A stretch of DNA of 32,289 nucleotides from a virus: the IMG/VR virus record IMGVR_UViG_3300033153_005184, positions 1 through 32,289 of that record; one strand, 5' to 3'. The notes below the pieces were generated by a model. The model was given only the letters and a program-made list of their open reading frames with translations, made no database searches and had not been told where the DNA came from. Of this stretch, positions 4,880 through 32,289 are shown in pieces. Position 1 is the first letter of the stretch. Every line of letters begins with the position of its first letter. Position numbers and translations under genes: made by a program.

Positions 4880-5446
4880 ATGGATAAGCAAAGTGATAGG
4901 TGGTATGCCGAAACAGCAAGACATAATAAGCATTGGAATGATAAAGAAAAGGTTTATTTAAAAAAGAACTACACTAAGCTTAGTATAGATGAGTTAATGG
5001 AAGATATGGGCCGTACCGCTCGCTCAATTCATATGGCAGCTTATAAGTTAGGGATCAGTCGTGAAAAAATCTTGGTGATAGATGGTACTAAGAAATGTTC
5101 AACATGCCTTAAAATTTTACCTATTGGTGAGTTTCATCTATCTTCTAATAATAAAGTTACAGGACTACGTTCTGACTGTAAGGATTGCGTTCGAAATCAG
5201 ACCTATCTTAGAAAATATGGTATAACTCTTAAACAATATGAATCTATGTTAAAAGATCAAAATCACAAATGTTATATTTGTAATAATAAAAGAAATGGAG
5301 AAATTGTATTTAATATCGATCATTGTCATACTACGGGCAAGATTCGTAAGATACTATGTAATGGCTGCAACCGAGCCTTGGGCTTTTTTTTAGATCGTTC
5401 TGACTGGATGCGAAGAGGTGCTAACTATGTGGAGGAATATAGCTAA
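4880..5446 (+). CDS. HNH endonuclease, endonuclease VII-like, probably free-standing homing enzyme
   Basis: This 188-aa nuclease has an N-terminal SANT/HTH-like DNA-binding segment (about 19-60) and then two zinc-binding sets. The first is C73/C76 with C100/C103. The second is C131/C134 with C160/C163. The catalytic HNH core reads NIDHCHTTGKIRKILC with D147, H148, H150 and N164, the pattern of recombination endonuclease VII (T4 gp49 family). A true Holliday junction resolvase is possible. The extra HTH, higher AT content and position between nuclease and polymerase genes favour a mobile homing enzyme. It starts 2 nt after the nuclease stop and its stop overlaps the dnaE ATG (TAATG). Confidence 0.85.
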   Translation: MDKQSDRWYAETARHNKHWNDKEKVYLKKNYTKLSIDELMEDMGRTARSIHMAAYKLGISREKILVIDGTKKCSTCLKILPIGEFHLSSNNKVTGLRSDCKDCVRNQTYLRKYGITLKQYESMLKDQNHKCYICNNKRNGEIVFNIDHCHTTGKIRKILCNGCNRALGFFLDRSDWMRRGANYVEEYS

Positions 5447-12033: not shown

Positions 12034-12163
12034 AAGCCTGTGTACGTTTTTCGCCTTAACCAACTTAGGACTGTTCGCATATAATGGACTAGCATTGAAT
12101 TTATATATTGGAATAGTTATGGTTGTGTGGGTTGTTGTACTAGAGTTTATAGGGAAACATTAA
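12014..12163 (+). CDS. tiny membrane protein, 49 aa
   Basis: A 49-codon frame starts at ATG 12014 inside the end of the VOC gene and ends in TAATG, where the polymerase C-half begins. It has two hydrophobic segments (about 8-26 and 29-46, IGIVMVVWVVVLEFIG). TGGAAG 11 nt upstream is a weak ribosome site. No function is recognised. Exact stop-start coupling to the polymerase gene supports it as real. Confidence 0.5.
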   Translation: MKIETSKSLCTFFALTNLGLFAYNGLALNLYIGIVMVVWVVVLEFIGKH

Positions 12164-13788
12164 TGAAGGAAACAGTAACATTTGATTGCGGCTGTACCTT
12201 TAATGTTAACGAGAAAGGTCTGCCAGTATTCGAACCATATCTAGATAAGATCAGACTGACCTGTCCTGCTACTTGGGACATGATCTGCGAAGGTAACACT
12301 AAGGGCGTCTTTCAGCTAGAGTCACAGCTAGGTCAAAGTATGGCCTCTCAAACTGCTCCTCGACATATGGAAGAGCTGTCAGACCTCATTAGCATCATGC
12401 GACCTGGATGTCTTGAGGCTATAGTAGAGGGAAAGAACCTGTCCACTCACTACATAGACCGCAAAGCTGGACGTGATTCAGTTAGCTACTTTCACCCTGC
12501 CTTGGAGCCAATCCTTGAGAATACATACGGCATCCTGGTATATCAAGAGCAGGCCCTAGGCATTGCTAGGCAAATCGCGGGGTATAATTTACAGGAAGCG
12601 GAGCTACTGAGGAAAGCCATTGGTAAGAAGAAGATTCAACTTATGGCTAAGGTTAAAGCCGAGTTCTTTGACAAGGCTGTGGGCTTCGGAATCATTAATC
12701 TAGAAGAAGCAGAGGAAATATTTAGCTGGATTGAGAAATCTCAACGGTACTCATTTAATAAAAGTCACGCTATAGCCTATGCTCATAACGGCTACCTAAC
12801 AGCTTTTACAAAAGCCCACTTTCCCCTGGCCTTTTTTACCGCTTGGTTGCGACACGCGAAGGGAAAGCAAAACCCGCACATGGAAATTCAAGACCTTGTG
12901 AACAATGCTCGCCTGATGGACATTGATATCGTTCCTCCGAGTATTTTGAACATGAATCGAGTATTTAAATTAATTGATAACAAACCTACGTACGGAATTA
13001 CTGACATAAAAAGAGTAGGCAGTTCAGTTTTCGACCAAATTCGTGGTGTAATAAAGAACAACAAATATGATTTAGAGGGATTTACCTGGGACGTGTTCCT
13101 GATGAAGATGGGGCGAATCATTAAATCTGACTCCTTTAAAGCTATAATATTGGCTGGGGCCTTAGACTGCTATAAAGTTTCTCGCATGAAGATGATATAT
13201 GATCTGGAGTTGTATCGAGAGTTTAGAGATTCTGACCGTAAATACCTAGAGACTGTAAAATGCAGTACATTTAAAGACGGCCTAGAACAAATCTTAACCA
13301 AAAAGATACCTCACGAAAGACGCACAGCTCACACAGACCGCTTTATTGAACTTACCCGTAGCTCCATGAGAGCGTTAGACAACCCGCCTTATCAACTGGT
13401 AGACAGCCCCGCCTGGATAGCTAAGCAGGAGCGAGAGTATCTAGGTATCGCCTTGACATGTACTGAGATTGACGAGCACGATATCGGTGACGCCAACTGT
13501 ACCTGTCGAGATTATGCACAAGGATTTAGTTCTCACTCTATTGCTATAGCTGTTAAGGTAGATGACTTGCGAGAATGGAAAATCAAAAAAGGAAAGAGCA
13601 AAGGAGAAACAATGGCTTTCTTAAAAGTGAGTGATGGAACATGCTCCTTAGATAACGTAACTATGTTCCCAGAAGCTTGGGAGAGGTACTGTCAAGACAT
13701 ACGTATTGGAAGTTTGCTATTGCTGCGAGGACAACGCGATAAGAATCGTGGAAGTTTTCTAGTAATGCGTGTTAAAAAGTTAACGTAA
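12163..13788 (+). CDS. dnaE: DNA polymerase III alpha subunit, C-terminal half (split DnaE)
   Basis: This is the C-terminal 541 aa of the C-family polymerase. It resumes with TKGVFQLES (46-54). The fingers/nucleotide-binding block QEQALGIARQIAGYN, the motif LLRKAIGKKK, RYSFNKSHAIAYA, and a C-terminal OB fold (SIAIAVKVDDLREW to VMRVKKLT) follow. The first 20 residues include an unusual CxC turn (TFDCGCTFNV) not typical of DnaE. I chose ATG 12163 because it overlaps the previous stop (TAATG) and AGGGA lies upstream; an in-frame ATG at 12127 would add 12 residues. All metal-binding aspartates are in the other gene, so activity requires both products. Confidence 0.92.
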   Translation: MKETVTFDCGCTFNVNEKGLPVFEPYLDKIRLTCPATWDMICEGNTKGVFQLESQLGQSMASQTAPRHMEELSDLISIMRPGCLEAIVEGKNLSTHYIDRKAGRDSVSYFHPALEPILENTYGILVYQEQALGIARQIAGYNLQEAELLRKAIGKKKIQLMAKVKAEFFDKAVGFGIINLEEAEEIFSWIEKSQRYSFNKSHAIAYAHNGYLTAFTKAHFPLAFFTAWLRHAKGKQNPHMEIQDLVNNARLMDIDIVPPSILNMNRVFKLIDNKPTYGITDIKRVGSSVFDQIRGVIKNNKYDLEGFTWDVFLMKMGRIIKSDSFKAIILAGALDCYKVSRMKMIYDLELYREFRDSDRKYLETVKCSTFKDGLEQILTKKIPHERRTAHTDRFIELTRSSMRALDNPPYQLVDSPAWIAKQEREYLGIALTCTEIDEHDIGDANCTCRDYAQGFSSHSIAIAVKVDDLREWKIKKGKSKGETMAFLKVSDGTCSLDNVTMFPEAWERYCQDIRIGSLLLLRGQRDKNRGSFLVMRVKKLT

Positions 13789-13809: not shown

Positions 13810-14256
13810 ATGGATAAATTAATTGAGCAACACATGCCCCTTGTGGCATCCATAGTCAATAATTTTGAACCCAAAAACAATACCGAACGAGAGGACTTAC
13901 TAGATGCGGGACGAATTGGGCTCTGGAAAGCATTGCGAAAGTTCGATCCCGCTCATGGCAGTATGGTCTCTACCTATGCGTGGCGACCTATTCAATGGGC
14001 CATTATCCGTGAAATTAAAAACAGACAGCGTAACGTGTCTCTAGATGATGTTGCACCCCCTTCTGTTAGAACCCCCGAAAGGATATGGGAGTACTACCCT
14101 AGCGACATGACTGACCAAGAAAAGCAGTTAATTGAGCTGCGATGCGAAGGGTATAAGTTTCGCGAGATATGCGAGATAGTTAATGAGACACCTTCCACGG
14201 TAAAAAACCGCTTCTATAAGGCGATAAGGAAAATCAAAGAAGGAAACCATGCATAG
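13810..14256 (+). CDS. sigma-70 family RNA polymerase sigma factor (small, two-domain)
   Basis: This 148-aa protein has region 2 (about 8-70; LLDAGRIGLWKALRKFDP, then STYAWRPIQWAIIREIKN) and region 4 (about 100-145; DQEKQLIELRCEGYKF, then the helix-turn-helix TPSTVKNRFYKAIRKIKE). It has no regions 1 or 3, an architecture like ECF and phage sigma factors. It likely redirects host RNA polymerase to phage promoters, perhaps those of the late tail genes. AGGA lies 6 nt before the ATG. Its end overlaps the first glycosyltransferase gene by 8 nt. Confidence 0.87.
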   Translation: MDKLIEQHMPLVASIVNNFEPKNNTEREDLLDAGRIGLWKALRKFDPAHGSMVSTYAWRPIQWAIIREIKNRQRNVSLDDVAPPSVRTPERIWEYYPSDMTDQEKQLIELRCEGYKFREICEIVNETPSTVKNRFYKAIRKIKEGNHA

Positions 14257-15904
14257 AAAGCCTAGAGTATTATTTGTATCCGAATCAGACAAGCTAGCTT
14301 CGGGCTTTGGAGTATACTCTCATGAGGTTCTTAAGCGGCTACATGCTACAGGAAAATATGAGCTCGCGGAATTGGCCTGTTATGGGGCACCCACCTCCTT
14401 TCAGAATACCGACTGGCTAACATATGGTGTGGCACCGATGGCCGGTGAGGACGAATATAATAAGGAGCACACTAATAACCCACAAGTCCAGTGGGGTATA
14501 GTCCGTTTTGAGAGAGTTTGTCTAGACTTCAAGCCAGATATTGTGATAACTTACCGTGACCCTTGGATGGATGCCTATATCGCTGATAGTCCATTCCTTC
14601 CCTTTTTTCATTGGGTTTGGATGCCTACTATTGACTCTGAACCACAAAAGCTAGAATGGTTATATCAACTCTTTAACCGTTGTGATGGTCTTCTAGCTTA
14701 TTCTGAATATGGAATACGAGCATTAGATCGGCAGACTAACGGTCGCCTCAAACCTGTGGGCTGTGCCTCTCCTGCGATTGACCCCAAAGTATTTGTAATG
14801 GCCCCGAACAAAGAGAAGCACAAAGAAGCTTATGGTCTAGACGGAGACAGTTTTATAGTTGGAACTGTTATGAGAAATCAGAAACGTAAGATGTTTCCTG
14901 AACTAATGAGAGCCTTCAAGCAATACCTTGATATGGCTCCTAAAGAACTAGCTGACAAGTCCTTCCTATATTTACACACTAGCTATCCTGAAAAACATGG
15001 ATGGGATATAACGTCTCTAATACACGAGTACAAACTAGGGTCTAAGGCTATATGCACATACAAGTGTAGACACTGCAAGAAGTTCTTTGTTGCTCACTAT
15101 CGCGATGCTATTACAGTTTGTAGATTCTGTAAAAACCACAGTGCTGTATTGCCTGGGGTTTCTAATGGAGTGGAAAGAGATGAATTAGTTCAGATTTTTA
15201 ATCTCATGGATCTCTATGTGCAGTATGCAATTTGCGAGGGTTTCGGCATGCCAGCCGTAGAGGCAGCTGCGTGTGGAGTACCTGTCGCAGCAGTAGATTA
15301 TAGTGCCATGGAAGACGTGGTTAGAGCTGTTAAAGGATATCCTGTTACTCCTGCTCTATCCCGAGAACTAGAAACGAATGCGGATCGTTCGGGACCGAAC
15401 AATGATGATCTGGCTCAAATTATGCTTTCCTGTGCCAAGCAAAGTAAAGAAAAATATAAGAAACATCGCCTCGAAACCCGCAAGGGATGTATTGATCGCT
15501 ATACGTGGGACAATGCTTCTAAGTCATGGGAAAACTATCTAGATAAAGTAGTACAAAAAAGCCTGGAAGGGAAGTGGGACTCTCCGCCGACAATGCGACC
15601 TCTTCCCGATAAGGCCCCAGCTGATCTAAGTCATCATCAATTCGTAGAGTGGGTCTGTACAGCACTATTACAAGATCAGTATTCGGCGTTCAATTATCGA
15701 ATGTTAGTTCTAGCTCGCAATCTTAACTTTGGGGCCAACTTTGGTGCGGGATTTATCTCTCCATGTACGCAAGAATCTGTCTTTAAGGAAATGCTTCCAC
15801 TAGCTCAACGCCGGTTCCTATTTGATGCACTGCGGGTGGGCTCTTTACAGGAAAATCCTCATCAATTCATAGTAGAGGCACATGGGAGATTAAAAAAATC
15901 ATGA
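14249..15904 (+). CDS. GT-B glycosyltransferase with internal zinc ribbon
   Basis: This 551-aa protein is of the GT4-like class. The N-terminal Rossmann start is PRVLFVSESDKLASGFGVYS. The C-terminal donor-binding motif CEGFGMPAVEAAACGVPV has the E-x7-E pair (E330, E338). Between the lobes a small zinc-ribbon insert reads KCRHCKKFF and VCRFCKN (C273/C276, C291/C294). About 100 extra C-terminal residues (HHQFVEWVCTALLQDQYSAF and on) form an additional helical domain. The sugar donor and acceptor are unknown. It overlaps both neighbours by 4-8 nt and heads the glycosylation cluster. Confidence 0.87.
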   Translation: MHRKPRVLFVSESDKLASGFGVYSHEVLKRLHATGKYELAELACYGAPTSFQNTDWLTYGVAPMAGEDEYNKEHTNNPQVQWGIVRFERVCLDFKPDIVITYRDPWMDAYIADSPFLPFFHWVWMPTIDSEPQKLEWLYQLFNRCDGLLAYSEYGIRALDRQTNGRLKPVGCASPAIDPKVFVMAPNKEKHKEAYGLDGDSFIVGTVMRNQKRKMFPELMRAFKQYLDMAPKELADKSFLYLHTSYPEKHGWDITSLIHEYKLGSKAICTYKCRHCKKFFVAHYRDAITVCRFCKNHSAVLPGVSNGVERDELVQIFNLMDLYVQYAICEGFGMPAVEAAACGVPVAAVDYSAMEDVVRAVKGYPVTPALSRELETNADRSGPNNDDLAQIMLSCAKQSKEKYKKHRLETRKGCIDRYTWDNASKSWENYLDKVVQKSLEGKWDSPPTMRPLPDKAPADLSHHQFVEWVCTALLQDQYSAFNYRMLVLARNLNFGANFGAGFISPCTQESVFKEMLPLAQRRFLFDALRVGSLQENPHQFIVEAHGRLKKS

Positions 15905-16968
15905 TAGACGTGCTCTATGTTGGACCATACCGACAGAATGACGAATGGGGTTATACCAGTAAAGCTGTTGCTACTTTACTAGCTGCACAAGATATCAATT
16001 TGGTATTGCGGCCAGTCTGGTTTACACCAGAAACTCAAGCTCAAGATGTGGAACACATAGAAGAATATGAATACAATGCGTTATCTACCAGGGATATTTT
16101 AATACAACACGGTCTACCGTCATATATTAATTACAACGGAGACTTCAAAACAAATATTGCTATTCTATCGGTAGATAGTCGTATTGATAATACAGAATGG
16201 ATAACCCATCTTCGACTAATGGACAAGATAATTGTCTTCTCTCACAGCGAAGCGAAGCTACTCTCAGATTCGGGACTCGACTCAGCCAAAATTTTTGCCT
16301 TTGAGTTTCCTCCATTCTTTTTGACTTCAAAAACTTCTGATCTAAATCTTGATTTGAAGGGGACGATTTTCTATACTACGGGATCGTTAGATATCAAGTC
16401 TGGACTAACGGAAATACTAACAGCATATCTCTCAGCATTTAGTATCGCAGATCCCGTTCATCTTATAGTTTGTACCAATCAATCCGAGGCAGTACAAGAG
16501 AAGGTTGGCGAAATCAAGAAGCAGCTAAGCATTTATTCTGTTAGCGAGTATTATCCAAACATAGTTGTTGTAGGGACTACCGCTACAGAGGTCATTAATC
16601 ATGTTCATCAAATTGGCGATTTTTTCATAGACGTATCCTACAATGCTATTCCTAATCAAGACCTATTGCGTGCCGTTGTAGCAGATAGCATCCCAATTCT
16701 ACCAGACAATATTGATATCAAGGTAGACTATCTTGCCGTTAAAACGTATGACGACTTATGCGTCTACCCTGCTCGCCCGGTTGCAGACTTGTGGAGCGGT
16801 GAGTTTACATGGACAAAGCCGAATATCTCACACCTGAAATATAAAATGCAACAGGCTATATCGACAGAGATAAATTTAGAAGAAATACATCAGTCTCTTC
16901 GTTCGTTTCAAGAAACACTGTTCACTAAGCCGAGCGAAAGAATGAAGGTCATCCTATGTACCAACTAG
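15901..16968 (+). CDS. GT-B-like glycosyltransferase
   Basis: This 355-aa protein has a probable GT-B fold. The N terminus is VLYVGPYRQNDEWGYTSKAV. A second-lobe start, GTIFYTTGSLDIKSGLTEIL, matches the strand-loop-helix that opens the donor domain of GT4 enzymes. Late in the protein the expected E-x7-E motif is weak or lost (FFIDVSYNAIPNQDLLRAVV). It may be a divergent or non-catalytic member. It is coupled by ATGA to the previous gene and overlaps the next by 13 nt. Confidence 0.7.
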   Translation: MIDVLYVGPYRQNDEWGYTSKAVATLLAAQDINLVLRPVWFTPETQAQDVEHIEEYEYNALSTRDILIQHGLPSYINYNGDFKTNIAILSVDSRIDNTEWITHLRLMDKIIVFSHSEAKLLSDSGLDSAKIFAFEFPPFFLTSKTSDLNLDLKGTIFYTTGSLDIKSGLTEILTAYLSAFSIADPVHLIVCTNQSEAVQEKVGEIKKQLSIYSVSEYYPNIVVVGTTATEVINHVHQIGDFFIDVSYNAIPNQDLLRAVVADSIPILPDNIDIKVDYLAVKTYDDLCVYPARPVADLWSGEFTWTKPNISHLKYKMQQAISTEINLEEIHQSLRSFQETLFTKPSERMKVILCTN

Positions 16969-17903
16969 AAAATATAATACGTTCCACTACTCGCACAGAT
17001 AAGGACCGATTAAATATTCTACTCTTTTGTGATAATGAGGAAGACTATATAATCCAGCTATGCAAGACCAACCATAACTTCTATATATTTACTGGACTCT
17101 ATGCATCACAATGGAAACGAGCCAAGGAACACACTCCGCTTAACCTACATATACTGCAGACCCCAACCTTAGCATGTAATAGAGCTTACGATTTAATGAT
17201 TGTATTCAATAGGTTGGGACAGTGGGAAAAGGCTGCGGATATTTCACAGGCATGGCATGTCCCTCTAATGGTTGTGGATATGACTAACTTTCAAACAAAA
17301 ATCCAACATCCATTTTTTACCAACTTTCATATTGACAAGCCCGAAGTACTGCATAATCGTGGTGGCTGTATTTCTATTGCATCTAGCGAATTTGCCACCA
17401 ATACATGGACTTCTCAGAATTCAATGCTATCTGCTACAATCAATATGCCACACAATGATGTTAATCGAACAGTTACTATAAAAGACAATAATCAAATTGC
17501 AGTTGACGTCGATCTTCCACAGCAATATATAAATAGTCTTCCTATTTCGTTAGATGATCGAGTTTTTACCCAGCTACTGTCAAAGTCTTGCTTCTATCTT
17601 CATCTGTGGCAAACAATAACCCCCAAAATGTTAGAAGCGATGGCTCTGGGAATCCCGGTCATCACCTTTAAAAGTGTAGACTTTCAAGAGCTTATGCAAC
17701 AACAGGCAATCATCTTAATTGAAGACATAGGCATCATGGCACAACCCGCTATTGTTAATGAACTAAAACAATTTAAAAAGAACGGAGATATTATCTCCAA
17801 CGCCAAACGAATAGTTCTTGCGGATCACGGTTCAGACGCATTTGTTGAATCTTGGACTAAAGTATTCGAGTACAGCAGAAACTTATTCTATACACGAGGA
17901 TGA
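16956..17903 (+). CDS. GT-B-like glycosyltransferase, divergent
   Basis: In this 315-aa protein the clearest signature is near the end: CFYLHLWQTITPKMLEAMAL, then GIPVITF, the donor-site motif of GT-B enzymes. The front half has strands typical of the acceptor lobe (LNILLFCDNEEDY, YDLMIVFNRLG). The glycine-rich N-terminal loop of active GT4 enzymes is not seen, so activity is uncertain. The reading frame overlaps both neighbours. Confidence 0.65.
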   Translation: MYQLENIIRSTTRTDKDRLNILLFCDNEEDYIIQLCKTNHNFYIFTGLYASQWKRAKEHTPLNLHILQTPTLACNRAYDLMIVFNRLGQWEKAADISQAWHVPLMVVDMTNFQTKIQHPFFTNFHIDKPEVLHNRGGCISIASSEFATNTWTSQNSMLSATINMPHNDVNRTVTIKDNNQIAVDVDLPQQYINSLPISLDDRVFTQLLSKSCFYLHLWQTITPKMLEAMALGIPVITFKSVDFQELMQQQAIILIEDIGIMAQPAIVNELKQFKKNGDIISNAKRIVLADHGSDAFVESWTKVFEYSRNLFYTRG

Positions 17904-18301
17904 TAAAAATGCATAAAGAAATTAGGCTAACAGTTATTAAACAAACTGAAAGTGATCTGGTAGAGGCTGAATTTTTTGATGCTCCCGACTCATTCTTCAC
18001 TAGTATTACAGTACAGGACGTACTAGAGATGTCTGACAAGTTAGATATTATAGATCTAGTGGCAGCCAAGGTCCGTAAAAACGGTACTCTAACATTAGAA
18101 GGTATTGACGCATTAGATGTATGTCGGCGTGTCCATTATGGAGTAATGACGCTCACTAGTGCCGCAAACGATTTTTTCACTAAAACCAAAAACTTGAATT
18201 CCGTAGCCACTCTCAAGGATTACTTTATCAAAAAGCAGTGGAAGGTTAATTTTGCGAGCCTAAAAGATGGTCGTTACCTATTGGAGGTTGTGAGAAAATG
18301 A
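17900..18301 (+). CDS. methyltransferase-like remnant, 133 aa
   Basis: The segment SITVQDVLEMSDKLDIIDLV followed by RKNGTLTLEGIDALDVCR resembles the second half of class I SAM-dependent methyltransferases. There a VLEH-type helix is followed by a KPGG-like turn and a strand. The SAM-binding glycine-rich motif I is absent, so it is probably a degenerate or repurposed fold without methyl transfer. The gene is intact and coupled at both ends (ATGA), so it is maintained. This is a moderate-to-low-confidence fold call. Confidence 0.5.
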   Translation: MIKMHKEIRLTVIKQTESDLVEAEFFDAPDSFFTSITVQDVLEMSDKLDIIDLVAAKVRKNGTLTLEGIDALDVCRRVHYGVMTLTSAANDFFTKTKNLNSVATLKDYFIKKQWKVNFASLKDGRYLLEVVRK

Positions 18302-19146
18302 CAGATCAAAAAACAGAGGGGCCGATAGTCAGTGCAACTCATACCACATGTAAAAACTGTGTCTTTGCAGAATTTAAAGACAACGTGCAAGTAGCCTGTA
18401 GTTTGCATAAGATCCAAGACTATCGTGATGCTGGCATCGAAGTACTAGAGGTGTTCGACGACGATGATCGTGAATTCTTCTTGATTAATGGTAGGTTCTG
18501 TCTGTTTTATAGAAACGAGCAGATTATGGAACGACATCCTAGGAATACATGGGAAAAAATTGCCAAGCTAACTACCAAGGTTCCATACCATGTGCTAGTT
18601 TTCTTCGAAGAACACCATAGCTTTCCTGATATAAAAAAGATCTTGCAAAAATTAGAAAATCAAGAGATACCACCTAACCTTGTAACTGTAGTTAATAAAC
18701 AGTACCAATCATATATAAAGGCTCCCGACAAGTATGTTAAGCCCAGCTTACTACTAGAGTTATTGGGTAACTGTAAATTTCACCAGTACAATCTCAAGAA
18801 CATCTACAATTCTGAACTTAGCGATAGAGCTATCATTGATTTAGTTTTTGATGTGGCGGGAAAACTACCCTATCCGTTCTACGTTACTTTTAGAGCAGGG
18901 TTCGATGTTCCCCTGGCCTTTAGTACTGAGCTAAATAATGCAGTACTTATTAAAATGATGCAAATAGGAGTTGGTTCTCCCGTAGATGACTTGAACGGAA
19001 TGATAGTCAATCGAACGGCTCATAAGAAACACGGTGGAAACGCTTTCGGAATTCATCTTGAGGATAAGATAACAAAATATGAAGAGAATGCACATAAATT
19101 TTTATATGAGGCAGTTGCCATATGTCCAAGTCTAAAAACAAAATAA
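18298..19146 (+). CDS. four-cysteine N-terminal module plus GT-A-like domain, 282 aa
   Basis: The N terminus holds C18 and C21 (TCKNCVFAE), C34 and C68 (NGRFCLFYR), a probable zinc or Fe-S knot of about 70 residues. The remainder (about 80-282) resembles a GT2/GT-A glycosyltransferase core: VPYHVLVFFEEHH, LENQEIPPNLVTVVN, then FYVTFRAGFDVPLAF and a late GGNAFG. A clear DxD motif is not seen, so catalytic status is unsure. It lies in the coupled glycosylation cluster and overlaps the next gene by 25 nt. Confidence 0.55.
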   Translation: MTDQKTEGPIVSATHTTCKNCVFAEFKDNVQVACSLHKIQDYRDAGIEVLEVFDDDDREFFLINGRFCLFYRNEQIMERHPRNTWEKIAKLTTKVPYHVLVFFEEHHSFPDIKKILQKLENQEIPPNLVTVVNKQYQSYIKAPDKYVKPSLLLELLGNCKFHQYNLKNIYNSELSDRAIIDLVFDVAGKLPYPFYVTFRAGFDVPLAFSTELNNAVLIKMMQIGVGSPVDDLNGMIVNRTAHKKHGGNAFGIHLEDKITKYEENAHKFLYEAVAICPSLKTK

Positions 19147-19595
19147 CTTTCATTGTCAATAATGATTTCGACATCCCCGAGAGTTTTAATGTAATACGCA
19201 ATACCGACAACTTACCTGAGACACAATTCTTTAATAAAGTATTGGCAGAGACATTTAACTCATTACTTCCGCTTAATGTGGTCGCGTTGATCTGCAACAA
19301 TACAGAGCTTATCAATCCCCATACAGAAGAAATAATTATGTCGCTTTTTGAATTCTATTCCGAAATAGGCTTCGTATACACAGACGCTCTTATTGTGAAT
19401 CAAGGTGTCGAATTTATAGACTATTTCAGCGGACTAAGCCTGCCAAACGAAAGCTTTTTTCTAAACTTGACAGTCCCACTACAACTAAACAATACAGAAC
19501 AAAGTAAGATTGGAGCAATGAATCAACTTCTGTCAACGGGAAAAACGTTTATTCATCTTCCCGATCCTTTGATAAAAGTTTATCATCAACTATGA
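19122..19595 (+). CDS. GT-A-like fragment, 157 aa
   Basis: This is a short protein with the strand-turn pattern of a GT2 core: LNVVALICNNTELINPHTEE followed by EIGFVYTDALIVNQG, which recalls the donor and acceptor region of family 2 transferases. It lacks the N-terminal nucleotide-binding Rossmann part in full length. It may work as a partner to the adjacent 282-aa protein. I selected the ATG at 19122, which overlaps the previous gene's end. Confidence 0.5.
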   Translation: MSKSKNKITFIVNNDFDIPESFNVIRNTDNLPETQFFNKVLAETFNSLLPLNVVALICNNTELINPHTEEIIMSLFEFYSEIGFVYTDALIVNQGVEFIDYFSGLSLPNESFFLNLTVPLQLNNTEQSKIGAMNQLLSTGKTFIHLPDPLIKVYHQL

Positions 19596-20296
19596 GTGTC
19601 CGACACATAAAGGTTATTTCTGAACCCACTCAAATAGATATTATTATTCCTGCTGCGGGGCTTGGGCGTCGTATGAAATCATGTGGACCTAAACCACTAA
19701 TCTCTATTAAGCCCAACACAACTATTATTGAGAACCAGCTAAAAATATTCAAAAAGATAGTACCTAATTCCAATATTATTCTGGTGACCGGATTTGAATC
19801 AGATAGGTTAATGAACCAAACGCCCGACTCACTGATTAAGGTAGAGAACGAGCGATACGCCGAGACAAATGTAGTTCGCAGTATTGGTATGGGACTAAGG
19901 GCCTGTAAGAATGATGTCCTAATAGTCTATGGAGATTTAATTTTCAACGACTTCGCGATCCAGGCTCTAGACTTTAACAACTCCTGCATCCTGGTTGGCA
20001 ATGAGATTATGAACGATAAAGAGGTTGGCTGCATTGTTAATAGTCGTGGATCAGTAGAGAATATGATGTATGATCTTCCAGTCAAGTGGGGTCAAATCTC
20101 TTTCTTCAGGGGACGAGAGCTAAATCTGCTAAAACAAATCTGCTGGAATCCACAAAGCTATGGGCTGTTCGGCTTTGAAGCCTTTAACTACATTATTGCT
20201 AATGGCGGCAAACTAGCTGGATGCTACAATAAAAAAGCCCGAGTAATTGACATTGACACTAATAAGGACTTAGAAAAGGTAGGAACAGTTTTATGA
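19592..20296 (+). CDS. sugar-phosphate nucleotidyltransferase (GlmU/MobA-like)
   Basis: This 234-aa enzyme has the NTP-transferase signature IIIPAAGLGRRM (17-28) followed by GPKPLISI, and a metal-site-like strand LIVYGDLIFND. It would activate a sugar-1-phosphate or similar compound with an NTP. It shows no C-terminal left-handed beta-helix, so it is a single-domain member. Position among glycosyltransferases suggests that it makes the activated donor they use. It is ATGA-coupled on both sides. Confidence 0.85.
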   Translation: MSVRHIKVISEPTQIDIIIPAAGLGRRMKSCGPKPLISIKPNTTIIENQLKIFKKIVPNSNIILVTGFESDRLMNQTPDSLIKVENERYAETNVVRSIGMGLRACKNDVLIVYGDLIFNDFAIQALDFNNSCILVGNEIMNDKEVGCIVNSRGSVENMMYDLPVKWGQISFFRGRELNLLKQICWNPQSYGLFGFEAFNYIIANGGKLAGCYNKKARVIDIDTNKDLEKVGTVL

Positions 20297-23835: not shown

Positions 23836-26800
23836 TTAAGCACAAGAACATCCTGAGCCGCATGATGTTACGATTCTGTTTCCGGCACACGTAGTAAATC
23901 CAGCTAAAGTTGCACAAGTAAAGGCAACATTGGTTACGTACGCACCAACCTTGGTTACATCGATATCACATACATAATCACAAGACCATGTACTTACGTT
24001 AGTAAATCCAGCTACTTTTACAGCCAACTCACCGTCCCAAGTATCGAATTCGCCACCGCACGTTGTCGTTCCTCCATCCCCCAGTTGAATAGCAAAGTCG
24101 TTGCCAAATTGAAGATCAGAAACTTGTACGAACTGTTTTGCCACACAGCCAGCATCAAAACCGTTAATATTAAAGTTATTGAAAATAATGAGGGAACAGT
24201 CGCCGCAAGAGTCAAAACCAATACCACGGCCAGCGTGTAAGTCTGTAATGTAGCTCGCGGGCTTACGGTTACAATAAGGTCCACAAGAATCTTCGATTGG
24301 AGGACAGCCCGAAGGTGAGTAACAAAGCCAATTTTCAGGTACTTGTCCAGTCACACAGTCTACATTATATTTTTCAGTTTGACCGGGAAAATCACACATA
24401 CTCATGAAAATCGGATTATGGACTTGCTTAGCACAGGCTCCTTCGCCCGGTACCGATGCAATTGACAAGCCAGGACCAAAGCGTAATTCCGTTGTAAAAG
24501 TATCAGGCGTGGGAATTTCGCCGGTATTACATACTACTTCTGCTATCCTGATACCCGCAGTAAGTTCATAGTGACAGTCGTGCGGAGTTTCGGCATCCGA
24601 TGGCTTGAACTCTAAGCTAAGTCCACTACCAAGAGTTAGGTATCTAAAATCTTTCCAAGCACCCGTACTGGGAATACCCACACCAGTCGCTGGACACCTA
24701 TTGACATCTCGTATTCTTTGGATCTGCTGAATAGTAAATTCACACGTACCAGCATTAGTTTCGATTACCTCTGAACCACTAAAGACAAGATGAGCAAATT
24801 GCTGGCCAGTTGGCGTGGTGGTGACACATGCACCACTACCAGCTACTGTATGAGGAGCAGTTACTTTCCATATACAACAATCTGCGTCATATTCTGATGT
24901 TATTCCAGTAGAAAAATGTAGTTGTTTGAAAAAGGCTCCTGGAATTCCAACAGCCTGAGTACCGCAAGGAAGGTCATTGCCCGTAGCTGTTACTGTTGAA
25001 TCTATTCTATACTTGCATCCTCCTGGTGGACCATACCCGGTGAAAGCTAAACCCGATCCCATAACAATAGTTGAAAAAACTTGCTCATAAATAGGTGCAA
25101 GTCCTGTTCCTGTTGCACAGGTATGAAGACCACTAATAAATTGCGGAGCTGAAACAAAAGCGGCACAGCCGTCTTGATATAACTGCAACCCACTGCCCAA
25201 ATGTAATTCTGTATAGTTAAATCCGGTAACAGGAGAACTCAGGCAACCAGTAACTCGACCAGTAATGTAAAGGTTGGTGTCTAGTCTAACTACGCATTCG
25301 GATTGTTTAGTTAATAAAATACCGCTTCCAATCTCTGTCAAAAGAGACTGGAAAGGACCAACTCCTGTGTTTAGCTGGGAACAAATGCCAGAAACACCAG
25401 AATATTCGGGTACCACGCCATCAACTCGCCACTCACAACCGTCTTGAGTAGACTGTAAGCCTGTGCCAAAAATTAAGCACTCAAAGGTATGCGGACCGAC
25501 TCCTGGTGCCCCAGAGCTGCATTTGGTACTATAGCCCGAAGCAGATATAATACTGCTCAAAATCGCATCGCAATCCGGGCCGCCTGTTGATCTGTCCGTC
25601 ATTAGTAGGCCAGTACTAGCAACTATGCGGCCTGCAGTGAACTGAGGCACTGCGTCTCGCCCGCATACCCCCGTTCCACTGAGTGTCATTAGGGACGGTG
25701 TTCCACTAATAAGGGCAGTGCAAGAGTCTTCTGTTGTAACGCTTAAGTTACCAACAAATTTCAGCAATTCAAATGGACTATTAGTTTCTAATCCAGCTGC
25801 CGGATTACATAGGTCAGATACGTCAAGCTCGTGACCACTGACTCCAACACCTCCACCCGTAATACCAACAAAGATATCTCGCTGGCAATCCTCCCCACCT
25901 AAGGCCGTAGTAATATTAAAGCGTAATCGGGACAATCCGCATGAACTTATCCCAGTTTCACAGTCAAAGAGAATACGTTTAATATCATACCAAGTATCCT
26001 CCGCTTGACCTCCAGCACTACAAGCAACATCTAAGCGGTTTGCAGGGAACGCATAATATTCACAATCTACGTTATCGTAGTAAACAGGAATTTTACCGAT
26101 ACCAGTCGGTGGCTGTATTGTCCAAGGCCAAGATATGCTAGCTGTTTTATCCGCTATGGTTGACCCAGTAGCGTCTTCTACTACTTTACCATTCTCAATA
26201 GTAGAAATAGGATAACTAATAACACACGTACCAGTTGGAGTAACGTGGAGCGGTCTTGGTGGCTGGGGAGTAGTCCATACTCCACGCTCTCTATCATAAC
26301 GTAGATCGAGCGGAGCCATTGGCCATGTTTTAGGTTTTTGTAGCCAGCTATCTAGAAATTTATCCTCTAAAGAACTACTTACAAATGTGCCAGCTTCTGC
26401 ACCGGCAACACTATCAGCTTTATTTGGAATAGGCTTACCACAATCATCATAACCCCATTGCTGGATAAGCAGCGGTCCACGCAATGCAAAGAAGCGATAA
26501 TCTACCGCGTAGCCCTCGCCGCCATCATCACCTTCTATAATTGCCCAACCACCAGACGGTGGGGCAACATTACGACCCAATATCTCGATATCATGCCCAG
26601 ACAATGGGGTATCAGAACGGTCAGTAGGTAAACTTTCACTTGGGTTAGCCAAAGGGTCTAAATATGCACGAGTAACAGAAAGACTAGTATATTCGATGAT
26701 TGGTGGATCGGACTGCCTACTCTTACCCGGCATACCTGAGCAATAGTCACTGCTAGACGCCGCGAATGGAGATAGCCCACCATCACCAGACTTAGAGACA

Positions 26801-29754
26801 GGACGTAGAAGGCCATCCATACTCATTACGGCTACGGTGCTATATATGGTATCTGACTGACAAGCTAAGGTCAACTCGCGAACAGGTTGAGTATTAATCT
26901 CTGGTCGATCACCAGCAGTATAACGACCCACATAACAATGATGAGCAGATTTAGGTGATCGATCACTACGGGCAAGTTGTGACGCCAACATTTGACGGGC
27001 TCGGGCAATAGAAGCACCAACCTGCCTACGTAATAATTGACCAGCACGAAGATTACGCAAGTTGCTTAGCCGAGTCTGGCCAATATTCTTCAAACGTTCT
27101 GCATTGTCTTTATTGAACCTACCAAAGGCAGGAGTATATGTACTGAATTGATACTGGGTAGTAAAACCATTTGGCCCCACACTCACAGTTATGCTAGTTA
27201 CGTTTGGGCCGAATTCCCCAGTCCACTTGTTCATGGGAACATGAACATAAGGTAGTGTCGCAGCACATAGATCAGTATTGAATGTACGTGTGCCTACATA
27301 CTTTTGAGCCCCTTGAGAATTTGGAGGCGAAGTTGCATCGACGGAAAACAGTTCGGCACCAATTGGAATATTCGGGAAACCAGCTACGGTAATAGATCCA
27401 CGTTCACCCTTACGCATCTGAGTTACAGAGCTAGCCACCTTGTTCAGGGCTGCTTGATACATGATGTTGTCACTACCATACTCCCACGGAACAAAGCCTT
27501 CATCTGTTTCTAGATTCACCTGTCCCGGCAATCCCACTACGCCCCAAGGGCCATAAACTTGTACATGGTTCCAGGTAGGAGCTAACGCGGCACTAGGAGC
27601 TAAGGCGAATGGAACAGCACCCAAAAGCCAATTACCACGATCAATTATATTGATCTTGACATCGACCAGACCAGACCCGTTTAGCATAATATCTAGCCCA
27701 CCGTATGGTTCAATCATATTGTTCGTATCACTAGTTCTATTAGTGATAGGGGAGCCAGTTTTCAATAAGAAAGAAATAGTAGATGAAGCGGGGGCTAATG
27801 GCGTACCAAATACCCATTGCTCGTCTACGTCAGCTTTAACCCAGATATCGTCAACACCGTCAGTAATATAGTTGTCGTCTCCCAGCTTAGAGGGGTCAGC
27901 TGTAAATGAAAAGGCACCACCACCGATACGTTGTGCGGCTATCCCTGGAAATTTAACAATAGGTTGATACTTACCTACTTCATCTCGGAAGAAATCTGAG
28001 GCAGCAGTATCATGAGTTAAGCCTAAGACTGTAGAAGTGCCATCATTAATCCAACAGCCCTCAGTAGAAGGCTCATGAGAATATCGTAATTTTTGAGATT
28101 CAAGGTCAGTAGTAAAGCAGACAAAGGAAGTAGCATTCGCCAACCATTGCTTACCATAAAACTCATCGGCAAAGGAACGTACAAACTCAAAAACCTTATC
28201 TAAATCTTTAGCATTTGGGGCAGTGAGAGATTGATCAGTGGCGTGGTCATCTTTTAAGCCTACTCTCCATGCGTGTGCCGGGCGAGGCTCTTCCAGAGCC
28301 TTTTTGACCAAGTCATGTCTAAAGTTCGGGACTTGCTTAGTGAGCCGAAGCCAAGTCGCAAAATCATTATTTACTAGTAGAGCTACCTCTTTCCATGAAT
28401 CTATATCACTTAAGGCAGCACGAAGCTCTCGCTCGGTAATCCAGTGAAACTGGCCCGCAAAAGGAGTAAAAAGAGTAGTGTTTAGTCTAGACAGGTCCAT
28501 ATGGACTTGATATTCACCACCTACTACCGCTGCCTGAATCAACGAACCGTCTATATCTACACCCCAAAACGGTAACATATTAGATGCTTCGGCCTCAAAG
28601 CCCTCACGTATTGCTCCGCCAATAAGGTAGGTGGAAGTATCTTCATTCCGAATCTCTTCCCCCTGTGTATACGACAATACACCCCCATTCGCTTGTCCTG
28701 CTTGGGCTTCTTTGGCGGCTATGAAGTCGTCTAATATACCCAACTGGGGCTGGGTAGAACGTACCGCTATACGTACCTTGATTACCTTAAGTACTTTACT
28801 ACCATTCTTTACCGGCAGCAACTCAACATAATAGTCACAACCTGCATCTGAACAGACCTGACTTATCATTTCCATTAGGCTAATATTTGGACCGGAGATT
28901 CTGTAGTACAAAGGAGAAAAAGGAATCTCGGTTAGATCCAGAAGATAGTGACCAATATTAAGGTTAACATTAGGTAACGCTTGGAACGCGGGATCGGTGA
29001 TAACATCGTCTCGCTTAATGATACCGTATCCATCCTCGGACGGGTCAGGACCAACATATACTATTCTATTGTCTCTACAATACCCAGTATATAGACTCTT
29101 GGCTAGAACTTGATCTGAAGAAGAAGTTAGTGTATGGACAGCACACTTGACATCGTTCCATACCATACCTCGACTATTAGCTTGGTTGCCGATAGGGTTG
29201 TCAGATGTAACGCCACCTATAGCACCAGCAGGAGATGAAGTACAAGTCGCTCCCAAACTTTCCACGAAGCCGTAAGCGTTGAGTAGATTCCAAACGCCAG
29301 AGGTAGCACCAGGAAAGTCATTGACAATTACCTGAACCTTTTCAATGATGACTCGGGGATCGACCAGATTGACCGTGAAAACAGGATTACCATTGGCATC
29401 GTTTTTTTGCGTCCAACCCGCTACAATACCACAGTATTCAAATCCTCCACGAGCAGTCTCAGTAGATCCATCAGGGTCTTCTTCCATGCGGAAGTAAGCA
29501 GCGACTCCTGGTTCTGGAAATGTAAAGCCAGGGTCAGCCATATTTGCTGAGGACTGTCTATCTAGATTTTCATCCCACCAAACTCTAGAGCCTGCACAAG
29601 AATCTTCTACTAATTCAACAGAGACACTAGATGATTGCTCGTTCCATCCAGCTTGAACAGAAAAGCTAATAACACTACATCCACAAAAGATGCTTTGTCC
29701 TAGTGGTCCGTATATTCTAGCGGGAGTACATGTATTTTTGCCTAAAACAGCCAT
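23836..29754 (-). CDS. giant tail tip/fibre protein, 1972 aa
   Basis: This very large virion protein has a mixed architecture. The first about 1150 residues look like a tail hub/baseplate core: GYCRDNRIVYVGPDPSEDGY, YRISGPNISLMEMISQVCSD, and beta-rich and helical stretches such as QTRLSNLRNLRAGQLLRRQ. The last about 700 residues contain about a dozen modules of roughly 45 residues, consensus F..L.FGSGL followed by D.C.W.V and SG...C. These resemble fibre repeats but carry two cysteines each, which suggests disulphide or metal stabilisation. The protein ends CGSGCSCA. It likely contacts the host surface. It follows the 517-aa tail gene with an 18-nt gap. Confidence 0.8.
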   Translation of the reverse strand: MAVLGKNTCTPARIYGPLGQSIFCGCSVISFSVQAGWNEQSSSVSVELVEDSCAGSRVWWDENLDRQSSANMADPGFTFPEPGVAAYFRMEEDPDGSTETARGGFEYCGIVAGWTQKNDANGNPVFTVNLVDPRVIIEKVQVIVNDFPGATSGVWNLLNAYGFVESLGATCTSSPAGAIGGVTSDNPIGNQANSRGMVWNDVKCAVHTLTSSSDQVLAKSLYTGYCRDNRIVYVGPDPSEDGYGIIKRDDVITDPAFQALPNVNLNIGHYLLDLTEIPFSPLYYRISGPNISLMEMISQVCSDAGCDYYVELLPVKNGSKVLKVIKVRIAVRSTQPQLGILDDFIAAKEAQAGQANGGVLSYTQGEEIRNEDTSTYLIGGAIREGFEAEASNMLPFWGVDIDGSLIQAAVVGGEYQVHMDLSRLNTTLFTPFAGQFHWITERELRAALSDIDSWKEVALLVNNDFATWLRLTKQVPNFRHDLVKKALEEPRPAHAWRVGLKDDHATDQSLTAPNAKDLDKVFEFVRSFADEFYGKQWLANATSFVCFTTDLESQKLRYSHEPSTEGCWINDGTSTVLGLTHDTAASDFFRDEVGKYQPIVKFPGIAAQRIGGGAFSFTADPSKLGDDNYITDGVDDIWVKADVDEQWVFGTPLAPASSTISFLLKTGSPITNRTSDTNNMIEPYGGLDIMLNGSGLVDVKINIIDRGNWLLGAVPFALAPSAALAPTWNHVQVYGPWGVVGLPGQVNLETDEGFVPWEYGSDNIMYQAALNKVASSVTQMRKGERGSITVAGFPNIPIGAELFSVDATSPPNSQGAQKYVGTRTFNTDLCAATLPYVHVPMNKWTGEFGPNVTSITVSVGPNGFTTQYQFSTYTPAFGRFNKDNAERLKNIGQTRLSNLRNLRAGQLLRRQVGASIARARQMLASQLARSDRSPKSAHHCYVGRYTAGDRPEINTQPVRELTLACQSDTIYSTVAVMSMDGLLRPVSKSGDGGLSPFAASSSDYCSGMPGKSRQSDPPIIEYTSLSVTRAYLDPLANPSESLPTDRSDTPLSGHDIEILGRNVAPPSGGWAIIEGDDGGEGYAVDYRFFALRGPLLIQQWGYDDCGKPIPNKADSVAGAEAGTFVSSSLEDKFLDSWLQKPKTWPMAPLDLRYDRERGVWTTPQPPRPLHVTPTGTCVISYPISTIENGKVVEDATGSTIADKTASISWPWTIQPPTGIGKIPVYYDNVDCEYYAFPANRLDVACSAGGQAEDTWYDIKRILFDCETGISSCGLSRLRFNITTALGGEDCQRDIFVGITGGGVGVSGHELDVSDLCNPAAGLETNSPFELLKFVGNLSVTTEDSCTALISGTPSLMTLSGTGVCGRDAVPQFTAGRIVASTGLLMTDRSTGGPDCDAILSSIISASGYSTKCSSGAPGVGPHTFECLIFGTGLQSTQDGCEWRVDGVVPEYSGVSGICSQLNTGVGPFQSLLTEIGSGILLTKQSECVVRLDTNLYITGRVTGCLSSPVTGFNYTELHLGSGLQLYQDGCAAFVSAPQFISGLHTCATGTGLAPIYEQVFSTIVMGSGLAFTGYGPPGGCKYRIDSTVTATGNDLPCGTQAVGIPGAFFKQLHFSTGITSEYDADCCIWKVTAPHTVAGSGACVTTTPTGQQFAHLVFSGSEVIETNAGTCEFTIQQIQRIRDVNRCPATGVGIPSTGAWKDFRYLTLGSGLSLEFKPSDAETPHDCHYELTAGIRIAEVVCNTGEIPTPDTFTTELRFGPGLSIASVPGEGACAKQVHNPIFMSMCDFPGQTEKYNVDCVTGQVPENWLCYSPSGCPPIEDSCGPYCNRKPASYITDLHAGRGIGFDSCGDCSLIIFNNFNINGFDAGCVAKQFVQVSDLQFGNDFAIQLGDGGTTTCGGEFDTWDGELAVKVAGFTNVSTWSCDYVCDIDVTKVGAYVTNVAFTCATLAGFTTCAGNRIVTSCGSGCSCA
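23900..25830 (-). repeat. cysteine-paired fibre-like repeat domain, about a dozen modules
   Basis: In the C-terminal third of the 1972-aa protein, modules recur with strands such as ECLIFGTGLQSTQDGCEWRV, ELHLGSGLQLYQDGCAAFV and YLTLGSGLSLEF. Each is followed by a second Cys about 15 residues on. The modules are diverged at DNA level, so duplication is old. Module limits are approximate. Confidence 0.75.
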
Positions 29755-31344: not shown

Positions 31345-32289
31345 TTATTTTAGCTGAGGATCACCTGTGGTAAACTCCTGTAACCTCTTACCTACCTCTA
31401 CCATGACATCATTTAATACCTTTGGTCCTATTTCCTGCAAAATCGAAGCCCCGTTTAAAATAACTTCAACCGGACCTACCTTAGTTTCTAATGCTATCTG
31501 TAAAGAAGGTAAAGCTTGGATTTTCTCTGCCGCTTGTTGGAATTGTTGCACAAGAGGAATCACAGCACCAAAGCTAGTGCCTACGGCTTCGAAATTGCTT
31601 TGAAAATTATTGCCCGCAGCAACAAGTGGTTGAAGGGCGTCAGCAGTAGCTCGGCCTGCTGCCAATGCACTTTTAGCAGCCTGAGAAACACCCGCTTCGC
31701 CGCCGCCACCAAGGGCCGGGTCCGCTGGCTTTTTCTGCCCCTGCCCGAAAATCGAAGACAATACGGCACCAGCCCCTTGTTGAGCTTGTTGTACAAAAGT
31801 GCCTGCGGTTTCGAAATTGCTTTTTAGCTGGCTACCAGCTGCAGACAATTTGTTACCTGCGATTTGTTGTCTGTTACCTGCGATTTGTTGTCTTTGTAGG
31901 GGTCTACCTCTCTCATTGATCTTCTTTTGGCTTGCTCGACGTTTGTCTAGTAAGGCATTTTGCTCTTCCTGAGTTCGGCCACCGAATTTTTTTAGACCAG
32001 GGCCAGCGGCGTCTTTAGCAGCCAAAGCACCCGTAGAGGCTGCGGCTGCATCAGGAAGGATCGGGCCAACAAATTCCTTGGGCAATGTGTCCAGATTCGT
32101 CGTGGGGAGGCTAGGAGCAGCAGCAGCAGCAGTCTGGGCAGCGGCGATTACAGGCGTCGACTGGTTCTTCAAGGCTTCGACGGCCAATGCAGTCCCGTGA
32201 CCTGATACGCCACGGGTGAGAGCACCAGTGTCATTAAGTACTTGTTGTTCGGCTTCGACTGAGGGAGCAGCAGCAGCAGTCTGGGCAGC
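31345..32289 (-). CDS. tape-measure-like tail protein, C-terminal part (5' end outside window)
   Basis: The reading frame stays open from 31345 to the window edge (314 codons), so the gene begins beyond 32289. A TTG at 32187 is only an internal codon. The protein is Ala/Gln rich with helical repeats (QQIAGNR-type, SNFETAG and SNFEAVG), low-complexity AAQTAAAAPS and AAQTAAAAAPS blocks 49 residues apart, and an end GPVEVILNGASILQEIGPKV that fits tape-measure tails. It is the most upstream minus-strand gene seen and precedes the 517-aa tail gene, the usual order. Confidence in the tape-measure role is moderate. Confidence 0.62.
   Translation of the reverse strand, partial: AAQTAAAAPSVEAEQQVLNDTGALTRGVSGHGTALAVEALKNQSTPVIAAAQTAAAAAPSLPTTNLDTLPKEFVGPILPDAAAASTGALAAKDAAGPGLKKFGGRTQEEQNALLDKRRASQKKINERGRPLQRQQIAGNRQQIAGNKLSAAGSQLKSNFETAGTFVQQAQQGAGAVLSSIFGQGQKKPADPALGGGGEAGVSQAAKSALAAGRATADALQPLVAAGNNFQSNFEAVGTSFGAVIPLVQQFQQAAEKIQALPSLQIALETKVGPVEVILNGASILQEIGPKVLNDVMVEVGKRLQEFTTGDPQLK
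31851..31892 (-). repeat. perfect 21-bp tandem repeat (two copies)
   Basis: Bases 31851-31871 are repeated at 31872-31892. They encode QQIAGN-type heptads in frame, so the duplication lengthens a helix without breaking the gene. Confidence 0.9.
32114..32289 (-). repeat. imperfect direct repeat of Ala/Gln-coding segment
   Basis: A GCAGCAGCAG-rich segment ending CTGGGCAGC occurs at about 32114-32142 and again at about 32264-32289, at the window edge. It codes for AAQTAAAAPS-type sequence. The two copies are 49 codons apart, so more copies may lie beyond the window. Confidence 0.7.

What the first reader, a model, noticed from the sequence alone, without database searches (positions are those of the whole stretch)
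23836..26060. Fibre-like repeats with two cysteines each in a giant tail protein
About a dozen modules of roughly 45 residues combine the GSGL fibre-repeat style with a regular Cys pair. Phage fibres rarely have many cysteines. Regular disulphides or metal staples could give a rigid extracellular receptor-binding rod, fused directly to the tail hub chain.
Basis: partly seen in the sequence, partly recalled or inferred. Interest (0 to 1): 0.6.

Follow-up and report, generated by a model that had tools for sequence, protein, structure and literature searches.

The report
Cysteine-paired fibre repeats on phage hub
A phage, probably of Planctomycetota bacteria, carries a giant tail-tip protein whose far end is a string of ten 46-residue units, each with one pair of cysteines; close relatives have lost or multiplied the string, so it looks like a fast-changing, probably disulphide-stapled, host-contact fibre.

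Summary
Minus-strand ORF 23836-29754 (1972 aa) ends in ten clear modules (residues 1328-1787, mean pitch about 46 aa), two divergent modules and a Cys-rich cap. Every clear module has a Cys pair 13-19 residues apart. A module profile with all Cys masked and the window left out still finds six modules, against 0.005 per shuffled copy. Residues 1-905 model as a gp27/VgrG-type tail hub (VIA-align Z 7.9-11.4 to true hubs), in the slot after the tape measure, so 'fused to the hub' is supported. The modules form a family across uncultivated relatives: about 78 of 100 carry both Cys. Arrays are confined to one hub clade and were gained or lost at least four times in it; the window's nearest relative (68% identical) has hub and cap but no array. 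Disulphides remain inferred: the monomer AlphaFold model of four modules failed (pLDDT 29.5). Closest design precedent: Agrobacterium phage Milano's short tail fibre, one Cys pair per roughly 40-residue bead cross-linking the trimer; sequence unrelated. DUF1501 genes point to Planctomycetota, whose walls can be disulphide-rich. An exported thioredoxin also occurs in array-less relatives, so it supports no special link. Verdict: real, a new variant of a known kind.

The parts
23836..29754 (-). Giant tail-tip protein, 1972 aa: hub, linker, Cys-pair module array and cap in one chain
   Evidence: same gene at 99.97% DNA identity in a second contig, G001
27040..29754 (-). Hub part, residues 1-905, gp27/VgrG-like fold
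   Evidence: AlphaFold2 pLDDT 78.2; Foldseek to VgrG1 E 8.5e-4; phage tail proteins in BFVD, best E 6e-10; VIA-align Z 11.4 phi812 hub, 10.3 Mu gp44, 7.9 T4 gp27
26035..27039 (-). Conserved post-hub region, residues 906-1240, not modular
   Evidence: alignment with L003 and L004
25774..26034 (-). Cys-containing junction, residues 1241-1327 (Cys 1245, 1265, 1272, 1290, 1316)
25636..25773 (-). Module 1, residues 1328-1373, Cys 1345/1364
25486..25635 (-). Module 2, residues 1374-1423, Cys 1395/1412
25345..25485 (-). Module 3, residues 1424-1470, Cys 1440/1458 plus extra Cys 1426
25216..25344 (-). Module 4, residues 1471-1513, Cys 1487/1504
25078..25215 (-). Module 5, residues 1514-1559, Cys 1530/1546
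24931..25077 (-). Module 6, residues 1560-1608, Cys 1580/1597
24799..24930 (-). Module 7, residues 1609-1652, Cys 1626 or 1627/1643
24649..24798 (-). Module 8, residues 1653-1702, Cys 1671/1687
24496..24648 (-). Module 9, residues 1703-1753, Cys 1727/1742
24250..24495 (-). Module 10 (Cys 1774/1787) followed by a Cys-rich insert (Cys 1800, 1811, 1817, 1824, 1828), residues 1754-1835
24133..24249 (-). Divergent module 11, residues 1836-1874, Cys 1850, 1853, 1870
23839..24132 (-). Cys-rich C-terminal cap, residues 1875-1972; homologous to the cap of array-less L003
   Evidence: BLASTP E 6e-11, 54% over 35 aa
29773..31326 (-). 517-aa gene between tape measure and hub (Dit-like position; 71% identical in G002)
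   Evidence: no family match
31345..32289 (-). C-terminal end of the tape measure protein (cut by the window end), no Cys
   Evidence: the full-length homologue in G002 (L066:110-9151) matches phrog_4211 tape measure, E 6e-30

Best explanation
The protein is the tail-tip hub of a long-tailed phage with its central host-contact fibre built into the same chain. Residues 1-905 form the gp27/VgrG-like ring that closes the tube (shown at fold-model level). Residues 1328-1874 are a shaft of ten to eleven beads, each a GSGL beta-hairpin followed by a variable loop, ending in a cap. By analogy with other hubs and fibres the chain is a trimer (inferred). One Cys starts the second hairpin strand and one ends the loop; they most likely form one disulphide per bead after the virion leaves the reducing cytoplasm, within a chain or, as in phage Milano's fibre beads, between neighbouring chains, so that a thin fibre is covalently stapled about every 46 residues (inferred). 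Whole arrays are added or removed between hub and cap, changing fibre length and probably host range (array change shown, consequence inferred).
For: Hub fold and gene order capsid - tail genes - tape measure - 517 aa - hub in the close relative. Modules above chance without using Cys. In relatives about 78 of 100 modules have both Cys; C1 and C2 co-occur (odds 7.8, p = 0.0035 after hand correction of a few misaligned modules; automatic p = 0.039). Modules that lack C1 often carry an alternative Cys near the start of the core (C0): 8 of 9 modules with C0 lack C1, against 14 of 91 without C0 (p = 1.3e-5), as expected if one bond is kept. Modules without any Cys keep the same core (L022, L027). 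Cys enrichment is confined to the array: tape measure end 0, 517-aa protein about 1.2%, hub part 1.46%, distal part 5.9%. Array confined to one hub clade with at least four gains or losses; L003 has hub and cap but no array. Milano STF: Cys84-Cys102 and Cys127-Cys144 in two beads of 39 and 34 aa, listed as inter-subunit bonds (PMC10811340).
Against: No structural model of the modules: pLDDT 29.5, so no Cys-Cys distance. No Pfam, PHROG, PDB-sequence or cultured-phage match for the modules. Some modules hold only one of the two Cys. Modules are related by duplication, so the p values overstate independence. Trimerisation and receptor binding are analogy only.
Confidence: 0.66

Rival explanations
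1. The Cys pairs are metal-binding staples: C1 and C2 from the three chains bind a metal ion (zinc or iron) at each step of a trimeric fibre.
For: Regular Cys at fixed steps on a presumed three-fold axis; metal-binding fibres such as T4 gp37 exist (own knowledge).
Against: No CxxC or CxH clusters in the ten clear modules; C1-C2 spacing varies from 12 to over 20 residues across the family, atypical for a metal site; no conserved His nearby.
Confidence: 0.08
2. The Cys stay reduced or exchange with the host surface: the fibre reacts by thiol-disulphide exchange with a cystine-rich protein wall.
For: Probable host phylum Planctomycetota: DUF1501 genes in five related contigs including the window's own virus; both genome relatives found for that gene are Planctomycetota; P. 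maris envelope described as Pro/Cys-rich and disulphide-stabilised (PMC3035269). The phage encodes a predicted exported WCGPC protein.
Against: Exported thioredoxin-like proteins also occur in array-less relatives, so no specific link; two Cys per module argues for internal pairing; host not proven.
Confidence: 0.06
3. A flexible spacer of diverged repeats whose Cys pairs form local loops inside each bead without making a rigid rod; only the cap binds the host.
For: Variable loops and linker lengths; module number can drop to zero with the cap kept.
Against: Core conservation and regular pitch; similar repeats make rods in known phage fibres (own knowledge).
Confidence: 0.17
4. Compositional artefact or misassembly, not a functional array.
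For: The closest relatives lack it.
Against: Near-identical in two contigs, open frame, homologous arrays in other relatives.
Confidence: 0.01

Closest known systems
Agrobacterium phage Milano short tail fibre gp31 (PMC10811340; MK637516)
   Same: Trimeric slender shaft of two beads of 39 and 34 residues, each with one Cys pair 17-18 residues apart; hairpin-based beads
   Different: Sequence unrelated: module profiles give no hit above 0 bits on gp31; only two beads, a separate protein on a myovirus baseplate, and Cys enrichment across the whole virion
gp27/VgrG/Tal tail hubs (T4 gp27, Mu gp44, VgrG1, phage p2 and NF5 Tal)
   Same: Fold of residues 1-905 and genome slot after the tape measure
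   Different: Much larger, no detectable sequence relation, carries the fibre in the same chain
Lambda J / T1 gp33-type central fibre
   Same: Chain at the tail tip that continues into a single distal fibre (PMC11945409)
   Different: No repeated Cys-pair beads described in the passages read; no sequence match found
GSGL repeats of phage fibres / triple beta-spiral shafts (adenovirus, named only)
   Same: GxGL turn with hydrophobic strands on both sides
   Different: 46-residue unit with an extra loop and two Cys; relation rests on a recalled motif, no sequence hit

Membership tests
gp27/VgrG-like tail hub | Hub fold | tested here: met
   VIA-align Z 7.9-11.4 over 235-315 residues to about 30 hubs, with unrelated rows at about 4; Foldseek top hits VgrG1 and contractile-injection hubs
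gp27/VgrG-like tail hub | Gene follows tape measure and distal tail gene | tested here: met
gp27/VgrG-like tail hub | Trimer at the tube end | not testable with these tools
   only monomer prediction available
Milano-type disulphide-crosslinked virion | One Cys pair per roughly 40-residue fibre bead | tested here: met
   versus Milano Table 1
Milano-type disulphide-crosslinked virion | Cys enrichment across virion proteins | tested here: not met
   tape measure end has 0 Cys, 517-aa protein about 1.2%, hub 1.46%
Milano-type disulphide-crosslinked virion | Sequence relation to gp31 beads | tested here: not met
Milano-type disulphide-crosslinked virion | Disulphides observed | not testable with these tools
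   needs virions or purified protein
Triple beta-spiral fibre shaft | Beta-spiral fold in a trimer | tested here: inconclusive
   monomer model pLDDT 29.5, hairpins at each GL only; no PDB sequence hit
Tail fibre receptor-binding protein | Binds a host receptor | not testable with these tools
   position and variability only

The most novel reading that the evidence does not exclude
A planctomycete phage uses an array of cysteine-paired beads to bind its host's disulphide-rich protein wall by thiol-disulphide exchange, aided by a phage-encoded exported thioredoxin; array gain and loss tracks the wall proteins of different hosts.
Probability: 0.05. Interest if true: 0.85.

Novelty: new variant of a known kind. 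Interest (0 to 1): 0.5.

Why it matters
It defines an uncharacterised family of Cys-paired fibre beads (about 25 or more per chain in the longest) fused to tail hubs, in a phage group with no cultured member in the collection searched. It shows whole-array gain and loss between close relatives with a conserved hub and cap, a ready natural experiment on fibre length and host range. If the staples are real, it extends the Milano-type disulphide fibre to a hub-borne rod of many units. It also links these phages to Planctomycetota, a phylum with few known phages (own knowledge).

Tried and rejected
AlphaFold2 of four consecutive modules with a 27-row repeat alignment: pLDDT 29.5, no use for Cys distances. 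Sequence searches of modules in Pfam, PHROGs, PDB and cultured phages: nothing significant; one tblastn hit at E = 8 to a cyanophage tail tube gene is chance level. Exported thioredoxin as a partner of Cys arrays: rejected as specific evidence, because the array-less control group carries it too. Erv1-type sulphydryl oxidase: no hit, but the control genomes also gave none, so uninformative. Alternation of two module types: permutation p = 0.027 in L034 and 0.04 in L027, not significant in the others, where missed modules spoil the count; left open. Homology to Milano gp31 beads: not supported by profile. Neighbour-module pairing of C2(n) with C1(n+1): no correlation. Hub hit to ryanodine-receptor repeats vanished with the deeper alignment.

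Full report
What is there. The window is a 32,289-base virus record nearly identical to part of a longer contig, G001 (99.68-99.97% over the shared stretches). The finding lies in a minus-strand ORF, 23836-29754, 1972 aa. Its last 645 residues hold ten clear modules (1328-1787), a Cys-rich insert, one divergent module and a cap. Each clear module reads roughly F-x-x-L-x-F-G-S-G-L-x-V-x-x-x-G-C-x-x-x-I ... C, with the two Cys 13-19 residues apart. Cys content is 5.9% beyond residue 1230 and 1.46% before it (p = 7.5e-8).

Chance. I masked every Cys, built a module profile from other contigs only, and searched the window protein: six hits above 4 bits in the C-terminal part, none in the N-terminal part, mean 0.005 in 200 shuffles. 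The Cys-free consensus (FekLvFGsGLsvtddgd-geatisGp) looks like the usual phage GSGL fibre style, so the Cys pair is an addition to a known-looking repeat. That likeness is recalled, not tested: no cultured-phage hit was significant.

The hub. Residues 1-905 with 35 relatives fold at pLDDT 78. Foldseek finds VgrG1 and contractile-injection hubs and many phage tail proteins. VIA-align gives Z 11.4 to the phi812 hub, 10.3 to Mu gp44 and 7.9 to T4 gp27, while unrelated rows sit near 4. In the relative G002 the order is capsid (phrog_2522, weak, 9e-5), tail genes, a 3014-aa tape measure (phrog_4211, 6e-30), a 517-aa protein, then this gene.

The family. Scans of viral contigs gave 49 loci of the hub family in the widest scan; a scan of 84,980 prokaryote genomes gave none. 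Arrays occur in one clade of 14 hubs (quick maximum-likelihood tree, SH-aLRT 96; the careful search did not finish). Hub-family proteins outside it have 0.6-1.15% Cys, apart from one short fragment with none. Detected module numbers run from 2 (L004, L025) through 10 (L027) to 22-25 (L034, L022); these are undercounts where modules have diverged. The window's near relatives L003 (68% identical) and L019/L028 (61%) have no array; L003 goes from hub almost directly to a cap homologous to the window's. Starred branches force at least four gains or losses. In L030 and L031 the distal part is a separate ORF right at the hub stop.

The Cys pair. Of 100 modules defined without Cys, 73 have both Cys automatically and about 78 after I corrected modules with long inserts by eye. 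C1 and C2 co-occur (odds 7.8, p = 0.0035 corrected; p = 0.039 uncorrected). A third position, C0, near the start of the core, almost excludes C1: 1 of 9 modules with C0 has C1, against 77 of 91 without (p = 1.3e-5). That is what one conserved bond per bead would give. There is no correlation between neighbouring modules. Modules share ancestry, so these p values are optimistic.

Mechanism. I think the chain forms the central fibre of the tail tip, stapled by one disulphide per bead. Shown: modular array, Cys pairing pattern, hub fold at model level, gene order, array turnover. Inferred: trimer, disulphides, rigidity, receptor contact. The structural test of the modules failed, perhaps because such fibres fold only as trimers. 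The best precedent is Milano gp31, a trimeric fibre with two beads of 39 and 34 residues, each with a Cys pair 17-18 apart that the authors list as inter-subunit bonds. It shares the design but not the sequence, and Milano's Cys enrichment is virion-wide whereas here it is confined to the array.

Host and oxidation. G001, the same virus, encodes a DUF1501 protein (2.3e-56) and a thioredoxin-fold protein with a lipoprotein-like N terminus and WCGPC. The only two genome relatives of that DUF1501 protein found are Planctomycetota. A planctomycete envelope has been described as Pro/Cys-rich protein stabilised by disulphides (PMC3035269). This makes a link between Cys-rich fibre and Cys-rich wall tempting. 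The control weakens it: array-less relatives also carry exported thioredoxin-like proteins. I keep it as the novel case at 5%.

Verdict. Real and conserved; a new variant of known hub-borne tail fibres and of the Milano disulphide-bead design. Interest 0.5.

Noticed in passing
window 5446-7338 and 12127-13788: The DNA polymerase III alpha-like gene is split into two ORFs about 4.8 kb apart: they match consecutive parts of phrog_405 (42-614 and 622-1054), with several unrelated genes between.
   Followed up: no
window 14249-20296: Cluster of glycosyltransferases and a nucleotidyltransferase-like gene on the plus strand near the tail gene; parts are conserved in order in L002, L003 and L019; may modify virion or host glycans.
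   Followed up: no
L071:1378-1806; L070:1354-1845; L072:1438-1983: Phage-encoded thioredoxin-fold proteins with signal or lipobox-like N termini and WCGPC; similar exported forms (L073-L078) are widespread in this phage group.
   Followed up: partly
L071:1851-3074; L083-L088: DUF1501 proteins (one with a twin-arginine-like start) encoded by five contigs of this phage group; unusual phage cargo that points to Planctomycetota-like hosts.
   Followed up: partly
L030:9971-16509; L031:9989-14069: Hub and distal part encoded by two adjacent ORFs instead of one, so fusion or fission has happened in this family.
   Followed up: partly
L034 and L020 arrays: Modules seem to alternate between two types (F-x-SG/GNLS and GSGL with different loops), a possible 90-residue super-repeat; statistically weak.
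   Followed up: partly
window 2877-4877: 666-aa protein whose N-terminal part matches phage exonuclease (phrog_69) and whose C-terminal part matches terminase large subunit families; function unclear.
   Followed up: no
window about 28040-28220 (residues 513-572): Hub alignment of ten sequences gave a weak match to ryanodine-receptor repeat domains (E 3e-4) that disappeared with 35 sequences.
   Followed up: partly
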